Assembly (NCBI GenBank): GCA_017302895.1
Contig: JAFLBV010000001.1
Coordinates: forward strand, 1,054,001-1,118,000
DNA: 64,000 nt
Direction: 5' to 3'
Source of the DNA: Ignavibacteria bacterium
Lineage (GTDB): Bacteria > Bacteroidota > Ignavibacteria > Ignavibacteriales > Ignavibacteriaceae
This document shows positions 32,468 to 39,706 of the stretch, in pieces. Position 1 is the first letter of the stretch, and each line of letters opens with the position of its first letter. The notes under the pieces were generated by a model. That model had not been told where the DNA came from. It did not search any database and saw only the letters and a list, made by a program, of their open reading frames with translations. A program made the position numbers and the translations under genes.

Positions 32468-33874
32468 TTACTTGAGGAGAATCATCTTCTGGGTGCTCAC
32501 GAATTTCCCACTCGTAAGTCTTGCAAAATAAACTCCGCTCGCCAATTTTGAACCGTCAAAAGTGAAGTTATAAAGTCCGGTGTTCATCGGTCCATTCAAT
32601 AATGTCTGAACAAGTTTACCATTACTGTCATAGATGTGAAGTGTAACTTCGCCATCATTCGGCAGTGAGAAGGATATTTTGGTCGATGGATTGAACGGAT
32701 TTGGGTAGTTCTGATTCAGTCTGAATTCAAATTTGGATGTATTGAAATCATCGACTGAAGTTGGGGTCATACCAAGTTTCTGCATCTGCTGATAGGTCAA
32801 AGGATTTGTGTACTGCATATGTGCACCGTCAGCCACATCTTCTCCGATTGGAATCCAGTTTTTCGATGGTGCAACAGGGTCTCCTGTACTTCCCATGTAT
32901 TTCAGGAAGTCCATTTTAAAGGAGGTCTGATAGTTGTTAGGTATGGGGATAACACCTTTAAGGTTCGACATGGTGCTGTCAGCAGGATTCCAGGTTGCAA
33001 ACTTAATGGCACCTGTTGTATTGAATTCAGTGATTGCAGGAATGGAACCGCCAAAGTTTGCGTGGCAGTCTGTACATGTTCTGGCACCAGTTTTTACGAT
33101 GGTATGTGAGGAGTAAACACCAATTGCGTAAAATGATTTGTTACCCTGATAGGTGAGACTCTGCATCGAACCGACACCTACTTTATTGTCTTTTACCCGG
33201 TTTACGAGGAAAACGAAATCTTTCATTTGCTGGCGAGGTCTCTTAAGGTGATGTTCAACCTGCGAGTCAAAGTGGCAGTTGTAGCATGTTATAGCCGATT
33301 TTGCATGGCATGAATTACAGTGGAGTTTCCCTTGGTGCGGGTCATATCCGGCATGTGCAGCAGTAAGGGTAACATGGCAACCTGACTGCTGGCAGTCGGT
33401 TTTCATGGCTCCGGGTTGCAACATCGAGTTGTACTGAACGCCGTCACCGTGCATATCCTCTGTACCATGGCAGTCCCAGCATTTCATATTTACAGCTCTG
33501 TGCACATCATTGTAACCGAGAGAAATTTCGGTATTTTGTCTTGAATGGCAGCTTTTACACTGGGCTTCTTTAAGTGAATCAGGATTGAAAGCACTGTTTG
33601 AGGGATGGCAATCGATACATGATGGTGAGTAGGTACCTGTATAAGCCTGTCCGTCTGCATTGGTTGCTCCGTGGCAGCCTTCACATTCAAGATTGGGATG
33701 AGTTCCGGGAACTCCGGTTAGACCCTCGAAACCGCCGTTGGCGGCTGAATACCAGAAGTACTTACCGGCGCGGGTTTTATGAAGTGAAGTGTTAAAATTC
33801 TGAGGTTGTGCAAAGCCGTCAGATGTTAGAAACAATATTAATGCTAAAGAAAATAGCACGGTAGATATTTTCAT
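32468..33874 (-). CDS. Eight-haem cytochrome c with T9SS sorting tail
   Basis: A 468-residue exported protein. Signal peptide about 1-22 (ISTVLFSLALILFLTSDGFAQ). Eight haem c sites lie between residues about 40 and 280: CEGCH, CIDCH, CKSCH, CWDCH, CQQSGCH (a CX4CH variant), CNSCH, CYNCH and CTDCH. Extra His residues (for example DVHRAVNMK, AAHAGYDPH) could give bis-His ligation. The last 85 residues hold NQNYPNPFNPSTKISFSLPN and LASGVYFARL, a T9SS tail, so the electron carrier is predicted to cross the outer membrane. It follows the TPR gene by 5 bases and should be under the sigma-54-type promoter at 34352. Redox partner unknown. Confidence 0.88.
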   Translation of the reverse strand: MKISTVLFSLALILFLTSDGFAQPQNFNTSLHKTRAGKYFWYSAANGGFEGLTGVPGTHPNLECEGCHGATNADGQAYTGTYSPSCIDCHPSNSAFNPDSLKEAQCKSCHSRQNTEISLGYNDVHRAVNMKCWDCHGTEDMHGDGVQYNSMLQPGAMKTDCQQSGCHVTLTAAHAGYDPHQGKLHCNSCHAKSAITCYNCHFDSQVEHHLKRPRQQMKDFVFLVNRVKDNKVGVGSMQSLTYQGNKSFYAIGVYSSHTIVKTGARTCTDCHANFGGSIPAITEFNTTGAIKFATWNPADSTMSNLKGVIPIPNNYQTSFKMDFLKYMGSTGDPVAPSKNWIPIGEDVADGAHMQYTNPLTYQQMQKLGMTPTSVDDFNTSKFEFRLNQNYPNPFNPSTKISFSLPNDGEVTLHIYDSNGKLVQTLLNGPMNTGLYNFTFDGSKLASGVYFARLTSGKFVSTQKMILLK

Positions 33875-33879
33875 TGGGA

Positions 33880-34338
33880 TTACTCCGTTGAATTAATCAT
33901 TAGATTGTGGTTTATGTGTTTTTGTATTTGAAATTTCAGTTCGTTTACTTTGGGGTGTTCGTTGAGTGAAGTGAGCATTTCGAGATAATGAAGTGAGTTT
34001 TCAAGGCTGCAATAAAGCCAGAGAATGGAAATGGAGAGGAGGCAAAAATCATCTTCCTGTGAAAAGCCGGGTCGTTGTTCGAGCTCACAAATGAGATCTC
34101 TACAGGGGCAGTCCTCCAACTCCAAATCGGTCTTGAAAATAAACCCGGGATTCTGGACCACCAGAGGCAAAAGATAGTCCAGTGCTGACAGGGGATTCCC
34201 GAGAAATATTTCACACAATACAAGTTTTTTCTTTACTGCATCGCTGTTTCGTACGCTTTCCGGAAGCCTTAGAAAAACCTCTCTGGCTTTAGCGTAGTTT
34301 CTGACTATAAAATAATTGTTTGCTAACATTTCTGACAT
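33880..34338 (-). CDS. Small TPR-like helical protein
   Basis: A 152-residue helical protein. The frame is open from 34425, but the sigma-54-like promoter (34352-34368) and an enhancer-like palindrome lie inside that extra stretch, so I place the start at ATG 34338 or 34329. Helix pairs such as NYFIVRNYAKAREVFLRLPE and LVLCEIFLGNPLSALDYLLPLV look like tetratricopeptide units. No signal peptide or membrane segment remains with the short start. No Shine-Dalgarno is visible, and the predicted transcript would be nearly leaderless. It precedes the eight-haem cytochrome by 5 bases and may help its expression or assembly (inference). Confidence 0.6.
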   Translation of the reverse strand: MSEMLANNYFIVRNYAKAREVFLRLPESVRNSDAVKKKLVLCEIFLGNPLSALDYLLPLVVQNPGFIFKTDLELEDCPCRDLICELEQRPGFSQEDDFCLLSISILWLYCSLENSLHYLEMLTSLNEHPKVNELKFQIQKHINHNLMINSTE

Positions 34339-34351
34339 AGTGCAGTAATGC

Positions 34352-34368
34352 TGCAAAAACCTTGCCAA
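34352..34368 (-). promoter_or_regulatory. Sigma-54 (-24/-12) promoter for TPR-cytochrome operon
   Basis: On the minus strand TTGGCAAGGTTTTTGCA matches TTGGCACGNNNNTTGCA at every fixed position but one, with GG (34366-34365) and GC (34354-34353) exactly 12 apart. Transcription should begin near 34341. The sigma-54 activator gene lies immediately upstream. Confidence 0.72.
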
Positions 34369-34516: not shown

Positions 34517-35854
34517 TTATTTCTCTTCGATGCCAAGTGATTTCATTTTTCTCCAGAGGGTGGTTCGTCCCATGTTCAGCTCAGATGCGACTTTTCCTTT
34601 GTTCCACCGGTGTCTGGTGAGGGCTGTGAGAATTCTTTCCTTTTCGGAGAAATCGTGGCTGAACATTGTGCTTATGAACCGTTCGTTTTCTGTTGATTCC
34701 GCTTTACGGGCACTTTTCAGATTTTCGGGAAGTTTTGAGGCAGTAATGCGGTCATCATGACGCGACCTGACAAAAAGATATTCCATCACATTCTCAAGTT
34801 CACGGATATTGCCGGGCCAGTCATATTTCATTAACACATCGAGGGCATCATCGTCAAGGAATTTTTCCCCTGACTTGAAAATGCTGGAGAATTTTTTCAA
34901 AAAATGATGGACGAGCAATGGAATATCATCCCTTCTTTTCCTAAGGGGCGGGACAATGATCGGTACAACATTCAGTCTGTAGTAAAGGTCTTCTCTCATT
35001 GTTCCTGAGGCAAGAGCGCGGTCGATATCGATATTCGTAGCTGCAATTACCCTGACATCCACTTTTCTCGTGGTTGACTCACCCAGTCTTTCGAAAGTCC
35101 CTTCCTGAAGGACACGAAGAAGTTTTATTTGCATCGATAGCGGTATTTCTGCTATCTCATCGAGGAAAATGGTACCGGTGTCTGCAATTTCAAATCTTCC
35201 GGTTCTTTCCTTGTGTGCGTCTGTAAATGCCCCCTTTGCATGACCAAACAACTCACTGACGAGGAGATTGTCATGGAAGATCGAACAGGAGACTTTCAGG
35301 TAAGGATTGAACCGTCTGTTGGAGAGAATCTGAATGGCATTTGCAACCATTTCCTTCCCGGTACCCGACTCACCTCTTATAAATACCGGGACATCACTTG
35401 AAGCCACATCCTGAATAAGATCAAAAATTTCCCTCATTTCGGGGGTTCTTCCCACAATGCCATGGAAATCGGTTTCTCCTTCAAGTTCCCTTTTCAACTT
35501 CTCAATTTCCGAGACGGGTGTTACGGAGATAATTCCTCCCTCGGGTGTGCCGTCGTCAGCGCGCAGGAGAGAAGCTGACATTTTCACCTGCTTCCTTTCA
35601 CCGCTTGAAGTGCAGATTTCGGAATAAAAATCGTTCACCTTTTTCTTTGATTCAAGTACCATTAGCATGGGACATTTGACACAGCAGTTTGACGGCTGGA
35701 ATACCCGCTTGCAAATTTTGTTCAGTACTTCTTCCTTCAGATGACCGGTCAGTTCCTCGGCGGCACTGTTGAAATAGGTAATCCTGAGATTCTTGTCCAC
35801 AGTAAACACTGCTTCACTAATTGAGTCGAGTATCTGGTCTCTAAGATTATCCAT
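34517..35854 (-). CDS. Sigma-54-dependent activator with cysteine-rich PAS domain
   Basis: A 445-residue NtrC-family activator without a receiver domain. Residues about 1-120 are a PAS domain with a Cys cluster (CKRVFQPSNCCVKCPM), as in redox-associated PAS activators. About 135-375 is the AAA+ domain: Walker A GESGTGKE, sigma-54 contact loop GAFTDA (a variant of GAFTGA), IFLDEIAEIP Walker B, and RLGESTTRKVDVRVIAATN. The C-terminus (RHRWNKGKVASELNMGRTTL) is a Fis-type helix-turn-helix. It is separated by 3 bases from the sensor kinase gene. A sigma-54 promoter and two palindromic sites lie just after it, suggesting direct control of the cytochrome operon. Confidence 0.88.
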   Translation of the reverse strand: MDNLRDQILDSISEAVFTVDKNLRITYFNSAAEELTGHLKEEVLNKICKRVFQPSNCCVKCPMLMVLESKKKVNDFYSEICTSSGERKQVKMSASLLRADDGTPEGGIISVTPVSEIEKLKRELEGETDFHGIVGRTPEMREIFDLIQDVASSDVPVFIRGESGTGKEMVANAIQILSNRRFNPYLKVSCSIFHDNLLVSELFGHAKGAFTDAHKERTGRFEIADTGTIFLDEIAEIPLSMQIKLLRVLQEGTFERLGESTTRKVDVRVIAATNIDIDRALASGTMREDLYYRLNVVPIIVPPLRKRRDDIPLLVHHFLKKFSSIFKSGEKFLDDDALDVLMKYDWPGNIRELENVMEYLFVRSRHDDRITASKLPENLKSARKAESTENERFISTMFSHDFSEKERILTALTRHRWNKGKVASELNMGRTTLWRKMKSLGIEEK

Positions 35855-35857
35855 ATT

Positions 35858-38800
35858 CTATTTGTTGAGTGGTTTCAGGGTAAATATTGTTTTGACAGCA
35901 TTCAAAATGGCTTCTTTAAATTTCTGAAGATTGACGGGCTTATTGAATATGGCTTCCGCTCCTGCTTCTGAATAAGCAATGTTTTCGCTTTTACCGAGCC
36001 CGTTTCCGAGAATTATCACAGGTATCCTTGCCCTGTCGAAGGATGAGTTGATACTTTTAATCAGGTCAAGTCCCGTCCTCTCATCGAAGGAATGTCCCGA
36101 GATTACCAAAGCTGGTACAGAATTGATGATACTTTTTGCAGCACTTTCGATATCCTTAAATTGATCAACCTCATAACCCGGCAGGAGATTGGAGATGATC
36201 TTTGCGTACAGTACCCGGTCGGTGGCACTGGATTCCACGAGAGCAATACGGGATGAGGCGATTGGCAACGAGAGGTTGAAGGTCGTCCCTTCTCCTTCCT
36301 TGCTTGTCAGATCAATACTCCCTCCATGTTTCTCAACAATTTCCTTTACGAGGCTTAAACCGAGACCTGTTCCTTTTTCACCGGCAGTACCGACAGTTGT
36401 GAATTTTGTGTCTACCTTGAAAACCTTGTCCAAATCCCCCTTCTTTATTCCGACTCCTGTATCCCTCACAAATACTTCAAGGAATCGGCCCTCCACTTTC
36501 CCTGTAATCCCGGCGGTAATCAAACCTCCTTTGGGAGTGAATTTAATGGCATTGGAGAAGAGATTGTTGAAAACCTGCAACACAAGATTTTGATCGACAA
36601 AAACAACCACTTCCTCAGGTATATTATTTTGAAGTGTAATATTTTTTTGCAGGGCTGTTCCGGATACTGCAGAAAAAGATTTACTGACGATAAGATGCAG
36701 ATTTTGTTTGACGGGTTCGAACTTCATTTTTCCTGTCTGGAGCCGTGTCCAGTCGAGAAGGGAGTTTACCAGTCCAAGCATGATTTTTGTCGAATCCTGA
36801 ATATAAGTGATGTATTTTTTCATCTCTTCGGGCGACATTTCCTCGGAGAGAAGGAAATCGGTAAATCCCAAGATGGAACTGAACGGGGTTCTCATGTCGT
36901 GAGAGATAATCGAGATAAATCTGTCTTTGGCTTCGTTCAGTTTTTTCAGGTTTTCGGTGGACTGGTTAATTTCGTCTTCAGCCTGCTTTTGTTTTGTGAT
37001 ATCAGAAACAAGCCCGAACATTTTTACAATCTTGTCGCCCTCCCTCACGAAAGAAATTTTATTTTTTACCCAGATTGAGGCGCCGTTTTTTGCGATTATT
37101 CTGCATTCAAGAGCACCGCCGTTTTTGTATTTGTTCCTGAGCAGGTTTTTGAGGTCAAGGAAATAGCCATCGAGGTCTTCGGGGTGGATTATCCTGAACC
37201 AGAAATGGTTGTTTCCGACAAATTCTGAGACTTTAAAACCGGTCATGGCGACAAATGAGGAGGTGACAAAAACAGGAGAGAGCCGGTTTTCGACTATTTC
37301 GGAGACCCACAAAAAGTCATCAATATTCTCGGCTATACTTCTGTATTTTGCTTCGGACTCCTCGATCAGTTTCCTGGCGAGCCTCATCTGAGTGATGTCC
37401 CTGACGATTAGGACATTAAAGGTTTTGTTGTTAAATTCGAATGAAGCTCTCGACACCTCTGCGATGAAAGCATTCCCGTCTTTTTTTACTCCGTTAAATT
37501 CCTTTCCCTCTGTTGAGTTCAACGGGTCATCTACAGGATGTATGAAGGAATTGAAGCTTTTCCCGATAATCTCGAGTTCAGAATCATATCCGAATATTCT
37601 CACAAAGCTGTTGTTCACAAAGATGAGAGAATCCGCTTCTTCAACGGCAATTCCATCGTTGGATGCCTCGAAGATTGACTGCATCAGAAGGATGTCCTGA
37701 GTAGTCTTCTCCCTTGAGGAAATATCCCTTATCAGGCAGGCAAAGCTTGAGAATGTCTCGTCTTCCTCAAAATAAACGAAAGTAACTTCCGCCGGGAAGA
37801 CTCTGCCGGTGCTCGTTTTAGCTCTTAAATTTCTTTTTTGAATGCCGGAAGTTCGCACCTGGTCAATTACGATGCTCTCATCCGTAAAAAGATCGTTAAG
37901 ATTCAGGTCTCTTTTTTGTGAATCATATGAGAGGATCGAGTAAAATCTTTCATTTGCCTTAATGATCCGTCCTTCATTGTCGAATTCGCAGATGAGGTCT
38001 TCGGATGAATTCAAAAAGGTTCTCAACTGCCGGTTTGTAAGTTGCAGAGCCCGTTTTTCCTTTTCCTCTTCGAAAATATCCCGGCAGATAATGGTGGCGC
38101 CGCCCTGGGAATCGATATTTTCGATCAGTCTGAACTCACCGAGTCCGGTGTTTTTTGCAGAGTTGTAGAGAGACCTGAAAACACCCCCCTTGAGTAACGG
38201 CGGGAAGTGGTTGATAATCAGGGAGACATTTTTGTTGAAGACCTCAAGTTTTTTGTAGCCAAAAAAGTTTTCGGCTTCCTTGCTCCATGATACGATTTCC
38301 TTTTTTTTGTTTACGGAGAAAATCGCCAGCCCCCCTTTTTCAGCGAGAACTGCGTAAGTCGAGAGTTCTCCTATTTGCTTTTCAAGAGATTTCAAATTCA
38401 TCTCCTGATGCGACACATCATCAAGGGTGAACAGAATTCTGGGTTTTTCGTCAGCATCGAAAAAAGGAATTGACTTAAGGTTCAGAAAGTGTAATTCCCG
38501 GTCCTTTTTAAGTTCAATCAGAGTGGATGATTGCAGTTCTGTCACTTTAATGGAAGTCGGATTCAGTTTCAGGAGTGAAAAAACAGACTCTTTCAGGACA
38601 GGTGAACTTTCGCTTAAATACTTGAAGACCTGTCGCCCTCCGTAAAAAAGAATTTTACCATCATCCTTTGTTATGAAGACGAGATCGTACAATGACGAAA
38701 GGATGTCGCCGGTCTTTTCATAGTGGAGATTCGTACTCATTACGAGTTCGGGAATTACCCGGAGATCCTCCACTATTATCAGCCCACCTGAAAAGTCATC

Positions 38801-39124
38801 ATCCGAATAAAGAGGAACACATTTACAAATCAGGCTTATGTTTCTTTTCCCCGAACTTATTCTTCTTATCTCTCTTTCGAAGGCTATTCCATCTTTTACT
38901 TTGAGGAGGTCTTCAGCAAGATCGACATAATCGAAAAGCCGGGTTTCAAGAAGATTGACGGATTGGTTGTCCTCCGAAATTGACTGATTAAGAACTCCCA
39001 TCCTGAAGAGGGCGGAGTTGATGGATGTGGTCACGAGGTCGTTGTCGAAAATCACGATCCCAATCGGAAGTGAATCCACGGGCAGGAAAGAATAAGCGGA
39101 ATTGTCTGTTTTTTTCTTTGGCAT
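35858..39124 (-). CDS. Six-PAS sensor histidine kinase with degenerate receiver domain
   Basis: A 1088-residue cytosolic sensor from ATG 39124; the open frame reaches TTG 39148 but without a ribosome-binding site. Six PAS-like domains fill residues about 12-715. The HisKA H-box FISIISHDMRTPFSSILGF puts the phosphorylated His near residue 742. The ATPase has N box VLQVFNNLFSNAIKFTPKGG, G1 RDTGVGIKKGDL and G2 GEKGTGLGLSLV. The last ~115 residues have a receiver-like fold (RIALVESSATDRV, ALVISGHSF, IFNKPVN) but lack the acidic pair and the phosphoacceptor Asp. No membrane segments. In one transcript with the sigma-54 activator, which has no receiver, so signal transfer between them is unclear. 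Confidence 0.85.
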   Translation of the reverse strand: MPKKKTDNSAYSFLPVDSLPIGIVIFDNDLVTTSINSALFRMGVLNQSISEDNQSVNLLETRLFDYVDLAEDLLKVKDGIAFEREIRRISSGKRNISLICKCVPLYSDDDFSGGLIIVEDLRVIPELVMSTNLHYEKTGDILSSLYDLVFITKDDGKILFYGGRQVFKYLSESSPVLKESVFSLLKLNPTSIKVTELQSSTLIELKKDRELHFLNLKSIPFFDADEKPRILFTLDDVSHQEMNLKSLEKQIGELSTYAVLAEKGGLAIFSVNKKKEIVSWSKEAENFFGYKKLEVFNKNVSLIINHFPPLLKGGVFRSLYNSAKNTGLGEFRLIENIDSQGGATIICRDIFEEEKEKRALQLTNRQLRTFLNSSEDLICEFDNEGRIIKANERFYSILSYDSQKRDLNLNDLFTDESIVIDQVRTSGIQKRNLRAKTSTGRVFPAEVTFVYFEEDETFSSFACLIRDISSREKTTQDILLMQSIFEASNDGIAVEEADSLIFVNNSFVRIFGYDSELEIIGKSFNSFIHPVDDPLNSTEGKEFNGVKKDGNAFIAEVSRASFEFNNKTFNVLIVRDITQMRLARKLIEESEAKYRSIAENIDDFLWVSEIVENRLSPVFVTSSFVAMTGFKVSEFVGNNHFWFRIIHPEDLDGYFLDLKNLLRNKYKNGGALECRIIAKNGASIWVKNKISFVREGDKIVKMFGLVSDITKQKQAEDEINQSTENLKKLNEAKDRFISIISHDMRTPFSSILGFTDFLLSEEMSPEEMKKYITYIQDSTKIMLGLVNSLLDWTRLQTGKMKFEPVKQNLHLIVSKSFSAVSGTALQKNITLQNNIPEEVVVFVDQNLVLQVFNNLFSNAIKFTPKGGLITAGITGKVEGRFLEVFVRDTGVGIKKGDLDKVFKVDTKFTTVGTAGEKGTGLGLSLVKEIVEKHGGSIDLTSKEGEGTTFNLSLPIASSRIALVESSATDRVLYAKIISNLLPGYEVDQFKDIESAAKSIINSVPALVISGHSFDERTGLDLIKSINSSFDRARIPVIILGNGLGKSENIAYSEAGAEAIFNKPVNLQKFKEAILNAVKTIFTLKPLNK

Positions 39125-39226
39125 AATAACTGAGATTAAGGAATGCAATTTAATCTATTGCCATGACATAAAAATAATGGAACTTTTTTGATTTTGGGTG
39201 GTAAAATAGTGAAAGATGTTACAAAA

Positions 39227-39298: not shown

Positions 39299-39706
39299 AT
39301 GAAGAACCTTTTATTGTTAGCCGCTGTGGTATTCTTTTTTACCGCCGGTACAGTAACCGCCCAAAAGGCACCCGCTGATGCAAAAATAAAAATGTGCAAC
39401 AGTTGTCATAAAGAAGGCAAAAACAAATTTGATGAGTTCAAGGCATGGCTTCAGACCAATCATGCCAAAGTAACTGAAGCTTTCGACAAACCGGAAGCAA
39501 AGGAAATCGCTGACAAGAACAAAGTTGCCAATCCAAAAGAAGCAGCAGCCTGTCTTTCATGCCATGTCGACAAAATGAAGGTTGAAAACTTTAACCCTAA
39601 AGATATCGATTGCATGAGCTGTCATAATCCTGAAAGCAAAGTGCACGCGATACCCGAAAAGGTTACACACCCAAGCGCTAAAAAAGCCGGTACTACTCAA
39701 AACTAA
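39299..39706 (+). CDS. Small triheme cytochrome c
   Basis: A 135-residue periplasmic protein. ATG 39299 is chosen because AAAGGA lies 9 bases upstream and a clean signal peptide follows (MKNLLLLAAVVFFFTAGTVTAQ); the frame is open from 39188 but that would bury the signal. Three haem sites: CNSCH, CLSCH and CMSCH, with further His residues (NHAKVTE, KVHAIPEKVTH) as possible distal ligands. It resembles small cytochrome c7/c3-like carriers, though spacing differs. It is divergent from the sensor kinase operon that ends in the eight-haem cytochrome, so it may pass electrons to it (inference). Confidence 0.82.
   Translation: MKNLLLLAAVVFFFTAGTVTAQKAPADAKIKMCNSCHKEGKNKFDEFKAWLQTNHAKVTEAFDKPEAKEIADKNKVANPKEAAACLSCHVDKMKVENFNPKDIDCMSCHNPESKVHAIPEKVTHPSAKKAGTTQN

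What the first reader, a model, noticed from the sequence alone, without database searches (positions are those of the whole stretch)
32468..33874. T9SS-tagged octahaem cytochrome: a candidate extracellular electron carrier
Seen: eight haem sites and a C-terminal NYPNPFNPST / SGVYFARL tail. Known: T9SS tails take proteins across the outer membrane. Inference: this would place a multihaem cytochrome on the cell surface without a porin-cytochrome conduit, a less studied path for electron exchange. The divergent triheme cytochrome (39299) could be its periplasmic partner.
Basis: partly seen in the sequence, partly recalled or inferred. Interest (0 to 1): 0.65.

Follow-up and report, generated by a model that had tools for sequence, protein, structure and literature searches.

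The report
Exported eight-haem surface cytochrome, sigma-54 switched
This Ignavibacteria gene encodes an electron-transfer protein with eight haem sites and an export tag that should place it on the cell surface, and its relatives sit beside, or share a genome with, a known type of outer-membrane electron conduit, so it probably extends that conduit outside the cell.

Summary
Window 32468-33874 (-) encodes 468 aa with seven CXXCH, one CX4CH and a type A T9SS tail well above the curated cut-off. In 31 of 391 sampled class genomes the haem domain carries this tail. The own genome has SprA, PorU and at least 150 tail proteins, so surface export is likely. 'Without a porin-cytochrome conduit' is not supported: the same genome encodes an Ignavibacterium album-type conduit (porin, 14-haem, 7-haem lipoprotein), and in Melioribacteraceae that cluster lies directly upstream of this operon. 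New here: (1) a conserved operon, sigma-54 PAS activator - TPR/CPC protein - octahaem, with a sigma-54 promoter at a fixed position; (2) 16- and 24-haem tandem versions that arose several times; (3) tailless relatives, so the tail was gained or lost at least twice; (4) the haem domain is a remote, unnamed cousin of ExtM and octahaem tetrathionate reductase, with only five invariant distal histidines for eight haems, so catalysis is possible. Best reading: a sigma-54-switched, T9SS-exported electron acceptor or terminal reductase for a conventional conduit. New variant of a known kind. Localisation and activity are untested.

The parts
32468..33874 (-). octahaem cytochrome with T9SS type A sorting tail, 468 aa (P0001)
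33809..33874 (-). N-terminal Sec-type signal peptide, about aa 1-22 (MKISTVLFSLALILFLTSDGFA/Q)
   Evidence: read from the sequence; no signal-peptide predictor was available
32759..33796 (-). octahaem domain, aa 27-372; eight haem sites, only five invariant non-motif His
   Evidence: A3/A5 alignments and column count; model pLDDT 89.4, pTM 0.87
33671..33685 (-). haem site 1 CEGCH
33605..33619 (-). haem site 2 CIDCH
33545..33559 (-). haem site 3 CKSCH
33467..33481 (-). haem site 4 CWDCH
33374..33394 (-). haem site 5 CQQSGCH (CX4CH; CXXCH in most relatives)
33305..33319 (-). haem site 6 CNSCH
33272..33286 (-). haem site 7 CYNCH
33062..33076 (-). haem site 8 CTDCH
32480..32707 (-). T9SS type A C-terminal sorting domain (Ig-like fold)
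   Evidence: TIGR04183/PF18962; structural match to T9SS CTDs
33880..34338 (-). small TPR-like protein with conserved DCPC motif (start MSEML), 5 nt from the octahaem gene on the same strand
   Evidence: conserved gene order in about 18 loci; TPR match in a relative
34352..34367 (-). sigma-54 promoter TGGCAAGGTTTTTGCA (29 of 31 points), 13 nt before the start codon
   Evidence: same position (11-14 nt) in 16 of 18 loci
34517..35854 (-). sigma-54 enhancer-binding activator with Cys-rich PAS domain; conserved upstream neighbour
   Evidence: Pfam, gene order, Cys motif
35858..39148 (-). PAS-rich hybrid sensor histidine kinase; neighbour kept only in close relatives
39299..39706 (+). triheme c554-like cytochrome, possible periplasmic donor

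Best explanation
The gene encodes a T9SS-exported octahaem cytochrome, switched on by its own neighbouring sigma-54 activator. Haem is attached in the periplasm, the folded protein crosses the outer membrane through the SprA translocon, the tail is cut or replaced by PorU, and the mature haem domain sits on the cell surface. There it takes electrons from, or gives them to, an Ignavibacterium album-type porin-cytochrome conduit encoded elsewhere in the same genome, and passes them to an outside partner (mineral, other cell or soluble compound). Tandem 16- and 24-haem versions extend the same module. Shown here: motifs, tail, tail fold, T9SS core genes, conserved operon and promoter, presence of the conduit and its adjacency in Melioribacteraceae. 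Inferred: surface location, haem loading, control by the activator, coupling to the conduit and direction of electron flow.
For: Eight haem sites kept over 32 relatives; TIGR04183 in 28 of 32, missing only in the acidobacterial and deltaproteobacterial relatives; T9SS CTD fold; full-length SprA and PorU, at least 150 tail proteins in the genome. Porin and 14-haem cytochrome in the own genome at 50-52% identity to the Melioribacteraceae genes that lie directly upstream of the octahaem operon, followed by a 7-haem lipoprotein; I. album cluster of the same make-up (PMC4245776). 33 of 36 octahaem-positive genomes have the porin against 198 of 355 others (Fisher p about 1e-5, shared ancestry not corrected). 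Repeated tandem growth to 16 and 24 haems. sigma-54 promoter at a fixed place.
Against: No localisation, haem loading or activity has been measured. The conduit genes are not next to the octahaem gene in this genome. The porin is common in the class (231 of 391), so co-occurrence is weak evidence. Tailless relatives exist even in Ignavibacteria, so the haem domain can work without export. At least three of eight haems lack a conserved distal His, which fits an enzyme as well as a wire.
Confidence: 0.52

Rival explanations
1. It is a surface-exposed terminal reductase rather than a carrier: an ExtM/OTR-type octahaem enzyme that reduces a soluble oxyanion (sulfur, selenium, tellurium or nitrogen compound) outside the cell, fed by the conduit.
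For: Best structural match among solved proteins is octahaem tetrathionate reductase 1sp3 (Z 8.0, 235 residues, 17% identity), also first in the profile search (E 3.8e-6); hhalign to genuine OTR proteins 96.3%, E 1.8e-9; ExtM model hit by 27-31 of 32 members; rhodanese-like lipoproteins in the L098 operon, as in the Geobacter ext cluster (PMC5877670); only five invariant distal His for eight haems.
Against: Scores are far below the OTR and ExtM family cut-offs; Foldseek alone found no significant match; haem order differs (no OTR haem 1, one extra haem 7); tandem 16/24-haem forms look more like a wire; no substrate evidence.
Confidence: 0.25
2. It is a building block of an extracellular redox-active polymer or biofilm matrix (wire or electron store), with T9SS only releasing it; the conduit contact is indirect.
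For: Head-to-tail modules of 8, 16 and 24 haems arose separately in several lineages; no lipid anchor.
Against: Most members have a single module; no sequence or fold match to OmcS, OmcE or OmcZ nanowires was returned, though that was not a direct test; T9SS type A cargo is usually anchored to the cell surface (own knowledge).
Confidence: 0.1
3. It stays in the periplasm: the tail folds as a domain but the protein is not exported, and it works as a periplasmic electron carrier like its tailless relatives.
For: Tailless relatives in Acidobacteriota, a deltaproteobacterial lineage and five Ignavibacteria-class genomes.
Against: The tail is kept in 28 of 32 aligned members over wide divergence and is missing in phyla where T9SS is not expected; the own genome has T9SS.
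Confidence: 0.08

Closest known systems
ExtM of the Geobacter extHIJKLMNOPQS cluster (NCBIfam NF040943; 12 haems; PMC5877670)
   Same: Best-scoring named cytochrome model for most members; shares the DVHR..C..CH...E(L/M)HGDG..Y.S motif block; in L098 rhodanese-like lipoproteins are also in the operon
   Different: 32-52 bits in the single-module members that score best (window protein lower) against a cut-off of 800; 8 not 12 haems; T9SS tail; sigma-54 operon; no Rieske/cyt b genes beside it
Octahaem tetrathionate reductase OTR (1sp3, TIGR04315)
   Same: Eight haems; predicted fold overlaps over the whole domain (Z 8.0); six haem sites align in order
   Different: TIGR04315 at most about 20 bits against 375; lacks OTR haem 1, has an extra haem 7; OTR proper is a separate gene in the same genome (L189, 579 bits)
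Porin-cytochrome (Pcc) conduit of Ignavibacterium album (IALB_1837-1840; PMC4245776)
   Same: The same porin, 14-haem and CX4CH-lipoprotein set exists in the window's genome and, in Melioribacteraceae, next to the octahaem operon
   Different: The octahaem is exported by T9SS and has no lipid anchor; it is an added, not an original, Pcc component
Decahaem lipoprotein family of Ignavibacteria (A6, unnamed)
   Same: Homologous haem domain (hhalign 99.6%, E 3.5e-24); often within 7 kb of the porin (positions)
   Different: Lipid-anchored, ten haems, no T9SS tail; not found in the window's genome

Membership tests
T9SS type A cargo | C-terminal sorting domain above curated cut-off | tested here: met
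   TIGR04183 46.3 vs 23 bits, PF18962 44.6 vs 27
T9SS type A cargo | Ig-like CTD fold | tested here: met
   matches mirolase 8qb1, NucA 8glk, PorU 6za2 CTDs; other Ig-like folds score alike
T9SS type A cargo | Sec signal peptide | tested here: inconclusive
   MKISTVLFSLALILFLTSDGFAQ read by eye; no predictor run
T9SS type A cargo | SprA translocon and PorU sortase in the genome | tested here: met
   SprA 989 bits, PorU 934 bits
T9SS type A cargo | surface location of the mature protein | not testable with these tools
   needs cells
ExtM (NF040943) | score above equivalog cut-off 800 | tested here: not met
   at most 52 bits in single-module members scanned, 157.6 bits in a 24-haem member
ExtM (NF040943) | 12 haems and ext operon context | tested here: not met
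   8 haems; no ext operon in the window
OTR (TIGR04315) | score above cut-off 375 | tested here: not met
   no hit for the window protein, best member about 20 bits
OTR (TIGR04315) | OTR fold | tested here: inconclusive
   VIA-align Z 8.0 over 235 residues, rmsd 4.6; Foldseek not significant
OTR (TIGR04315) | catalytic haem with Lys ligand | not testable with these tools
   model holds no haems; site could not be mapped
Pcc/Mtr conduit | porin and periplasmic multihaem encoded with the surface cytochrome | tested here: not met
   not in the window; about 820 kb away in the genome; adjacent only in Melioribacteraceae and G229
OmcS/OmcE/OmcZ nanowire cytochromes | sequence or fold similarity | tested here: inconclusive
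   no such chain among matches; not a direct comparison

The most novel reading that the evidence does not exclude
Ignavibacteria and allies evolved a T9SS-delivered, sigma-54-switched family of extendable (8/16/24-haem) surface cytochromes with an ExtM/OTR-like, partly open haem core, which acts as terminal reductase or wire tip on a standard porin-cytochrome conduit: a route of surface cytochrome delivery other than lipoprotein export.
Probability: 0.4. Interest if true: 0.75.

Novelty: new variant of a known kind. Interest (0 to 1): 0.58.

Why it matters
Known surface cytochromes of Gram-negative electroactive bacteria reach the surface as lipoproteins or through type II secretion (own knowledge). 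A haem-loaded T9SS cargo would show that a folded multihaem protein passes the SprA pore, and would give Ignavibacteria, reported on anodes and in iron-reducing and anammox communities, a distinct surface electron port. The conserved sigma-54 operon, the tandem 16/24-haem versions and the tailless relatives give clear, testable handles on regulation, length and location. No paper found in the searched library joins T9SS with multihaem cytochromes.

Tried and rejected
A full-length protein search of relatives was swamped by tail-only hits; the haem domain alone was used afterwards. The first pattern search used a wrong pattern (three bases between cysteine codons) and is uninformative. Membership in OTR or ExtM was considered and rejected on curated cut-offs. 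Foldseek with the full-length model found only the tail, with the haem domain nothing significant; HAO, octahaem nitrite reductase and MtrA appeared only at Z 2.0-2.5. Mutual exclusion of the octahaem and decahaem families was looked for by eye and not seen (about 5 of 36 against 63 of 355). Literature searches joining T9SS or sorting domain with multihaem cytochromes found no paper; most subscription papers and all bioRxiv preprints are missing from that library. I. album and M. roseus loci were not read directly; one accession look-up failed.

Full report
OBSERVATION. The ORF at 32468-33874 on the minus strand encodes 468 residues. It holds seven CXXCH motifs and one CX4CH motif (aa 161, CQQSGCH); 20,000 shuffles never gave more than two. 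The CX4CH column is CXXCH in most relatives, so eight haem sites is the right count. The C-terminus is a type A T9SS sorting domain by TIGR04183 (46.3 bits, cut-off 23) and PF18962 (44.6 bits, cut-off 27). A model of the whole protein (pLDDT 84.5) places the tail among solved T9SS C-terminal domains: mirolase, NucA bound to the translocon, PorU, though other Ig-like domains score equally.

EXPORT. The same genome (3.98 Mb, six contigs) has a full-length SprA (2304-aa frame, 989 bits), PorU (934 bits) and at least 150 tail-bearing proteins above the cut-off, this one ranking twentieth. Two further haem proteins of this genome carry tails: 787 aa with nine CXXCH, and 624 aa with five CXXCH resembling ExtKL. 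The octahaem is therefore one of at least three candidate T9SS-exported c-type cytochromes here.

FAMILY. Haem-domain searches found 36 strong members in 391 sampled genomes of the class. Thirty-one have a tail; five (G308, G117, G066, G252, G227) do not. Outside the class, records labelled Deferribacteres (L079) and unclassified (L080) have the tail, while Acidobacteriota (L077, L078) and two 'Deltaproteobacteria' MAGs (L085, L086) lack it. TIGR04183 is found in 28 of 32 aligned members, all but those four. The tree needs two tail changes: one between the tailless and the tailed group, and one in the acidobacterial pair, which sits inside the tailed group. Two-module (16-haem) and three-module (24-haem) proteins with a single tail occur in Melioribacteraceae and relatives and in L079/L080; the modules of a protein group with each other or with close relatives, so tandem growth happened several times.

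OPERON. In the window the order is sigma-54 activator (34517-35854), small TPR-like protein with a DCPC motif (start at 34338), octahaem, all on the minus strand. The order activator - TPR protein - octahaem recurs in about 18 loci over several families. Tailless deltaproteobacterial members and two tailless class members also lie near an activator of this kind. A sigma-54 promoter (TGGCAAGGTTTTTGCA, 29 of 31 points; random 250-base stretches of the window reached 27 or more in 10 of 2000) stands 13 nt before the TPR start codon, and such a site stands at 11-14 nt in 16 of 18 loci. In loci without the TPR gene, near-perfect sites stand 47-49 nt before the octahaem gene in L077, L078 and L107. 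The activators share a Cys motif in the PAS domain. Control by this activator is inferred from position.

CONDUIT. In Melioribacteraceae-type loci L071 and L090 the operon follows, on the same strand, a multihaem/cytochrome b561 protein, two tetrahaem c554-like proteins, a beta-barrel-like protein without a significant Pfam family, a 13-haem protein and a 5-6-haem lipoprotein; L098 (G229) keeps most of it. The barrel and 13-haem proteins have orthologues in the window's genome at 50 and 52% identity, adjacent, followed by a lipoprotein with six CXXCH and one CX4CH. This matches the porin, 400-aa 14-haem and atypical-motif outer cytochrome of I. album (PMC4245776). The genome also has an 18-haem/cytochrome b561 protein that could be the quinol oxidase. 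The porin is present in 231 of 391 class genomes and in 33 of 36 octahaem-positive ones (Fisher p about 1e-5, uncorrected for ancestry). The triheme at 39299 matches the cluster's tetrahaem protein at 30% over 87 residues: a possible but unproven donor.

WHAT THE HAEM DOMAIN IS. Modelled alone (pLDDT 89.4, pTM 0.87) it gives no significant Foldseek match, but the re-alignment puts octahaem tetrathionate reductase 1sp3 first (Z 8.0, 235 residues, rmsd 4.6, 17% identity) with the next at 2.5. The profile search of PDB sequences also ranks 1sp3 first (E 3.8e-6), and hhalign to two OTR-type proteins gives 96.3%, E 1.8e-9, pairing haems 1-6 with OTR haems 2-7 (my reading of the alignment). The best named model is ExtM, hit by 27-31 of 32 members. 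A class-wide family of decahaem lipoproteins is homologous (99.6%, E 3.5e-24) and often lies within 7 kb of the porin (positions). So the domain belongs to an ExtM/OTR-like superfamily but to no curated family. Over 32 members only five non-motif histidines are invariant (32, 125, 142, 180, 257), and several members have 15 His in the first 370 residues, below the 16 needed for eight bis-His haems. Some haems must have other ligands or open sites; which ones cannot be told from the model.

JUDGEMENT. Export to the surface is likely. Electron exchange with an I. album-type conduit is the best single account of the neighbourhood and distribution. Whether the octahaem is a carrier or a terminal reductase is open. 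It is a new variant of known kinds (T9SS cargo; outer-surface multihaem cytochrome), not a new category. Nothing here was measured in cells.

Noticed in passing
window 34352-34367 and 34338: sigma-54 promoter only 13 nt before the TPR gene start codon, kept at 11-14 nt in 16 of 18 loci: the transcript should be nearly leaderless.
   Followed up: partly
window 33880-34338: Small TPR-like protein with conserved DCPC(P) motif between activator and cytochrome; role unknown, perhaps a modulator of the activator.
   Followed up: partly
window 34517-35854: PAS domain of the sigma-54 activator has a conserved Cys motif (CKRVFQPSNCCVKCP here) in nearly all octahaem-linked copies, a possible metal or redox sensor.
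   Followed up: partly
L054/L098, L044/L071, L045/L090, L079, L080: Tandem 16- and 24-haem versions of the octahaem module with one T9SS tail, arisen several times.
   Followed up: yes
L185:1807-4167 and L186:2838-4709 (window's genome): Two further haem proteins with T9SS tails: nonahaem 787 aa and pentahaem ExtKL-like 624 aa.
   Followed up: partly
L187:4643-7897 (window's genome): A 1085-residue frame with 43 CXXCH motifs just after a 531-residue frame with 20.
   Followed up: no
L077, L078: Acidobacterial relatives sit inside the tailed group but end right after the haem domain, with perfect or near-perfect sigma-54 sites 47 nt upstream: tail lost, promoter kept.
   Followed up: yes
L192-L211: Class-wide family of decahaem lipoproteins, homologous to the octahaem domain and often within 7 kb of the conduit porin.
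   Followed up: partly
L189:3425-5014 (window's genome): A genuine OTR-family octahaem protein (TIGR04315, 579 bits), separate from the finding; NrfH- and NrfA-like genes in L190.
   Followed up: no
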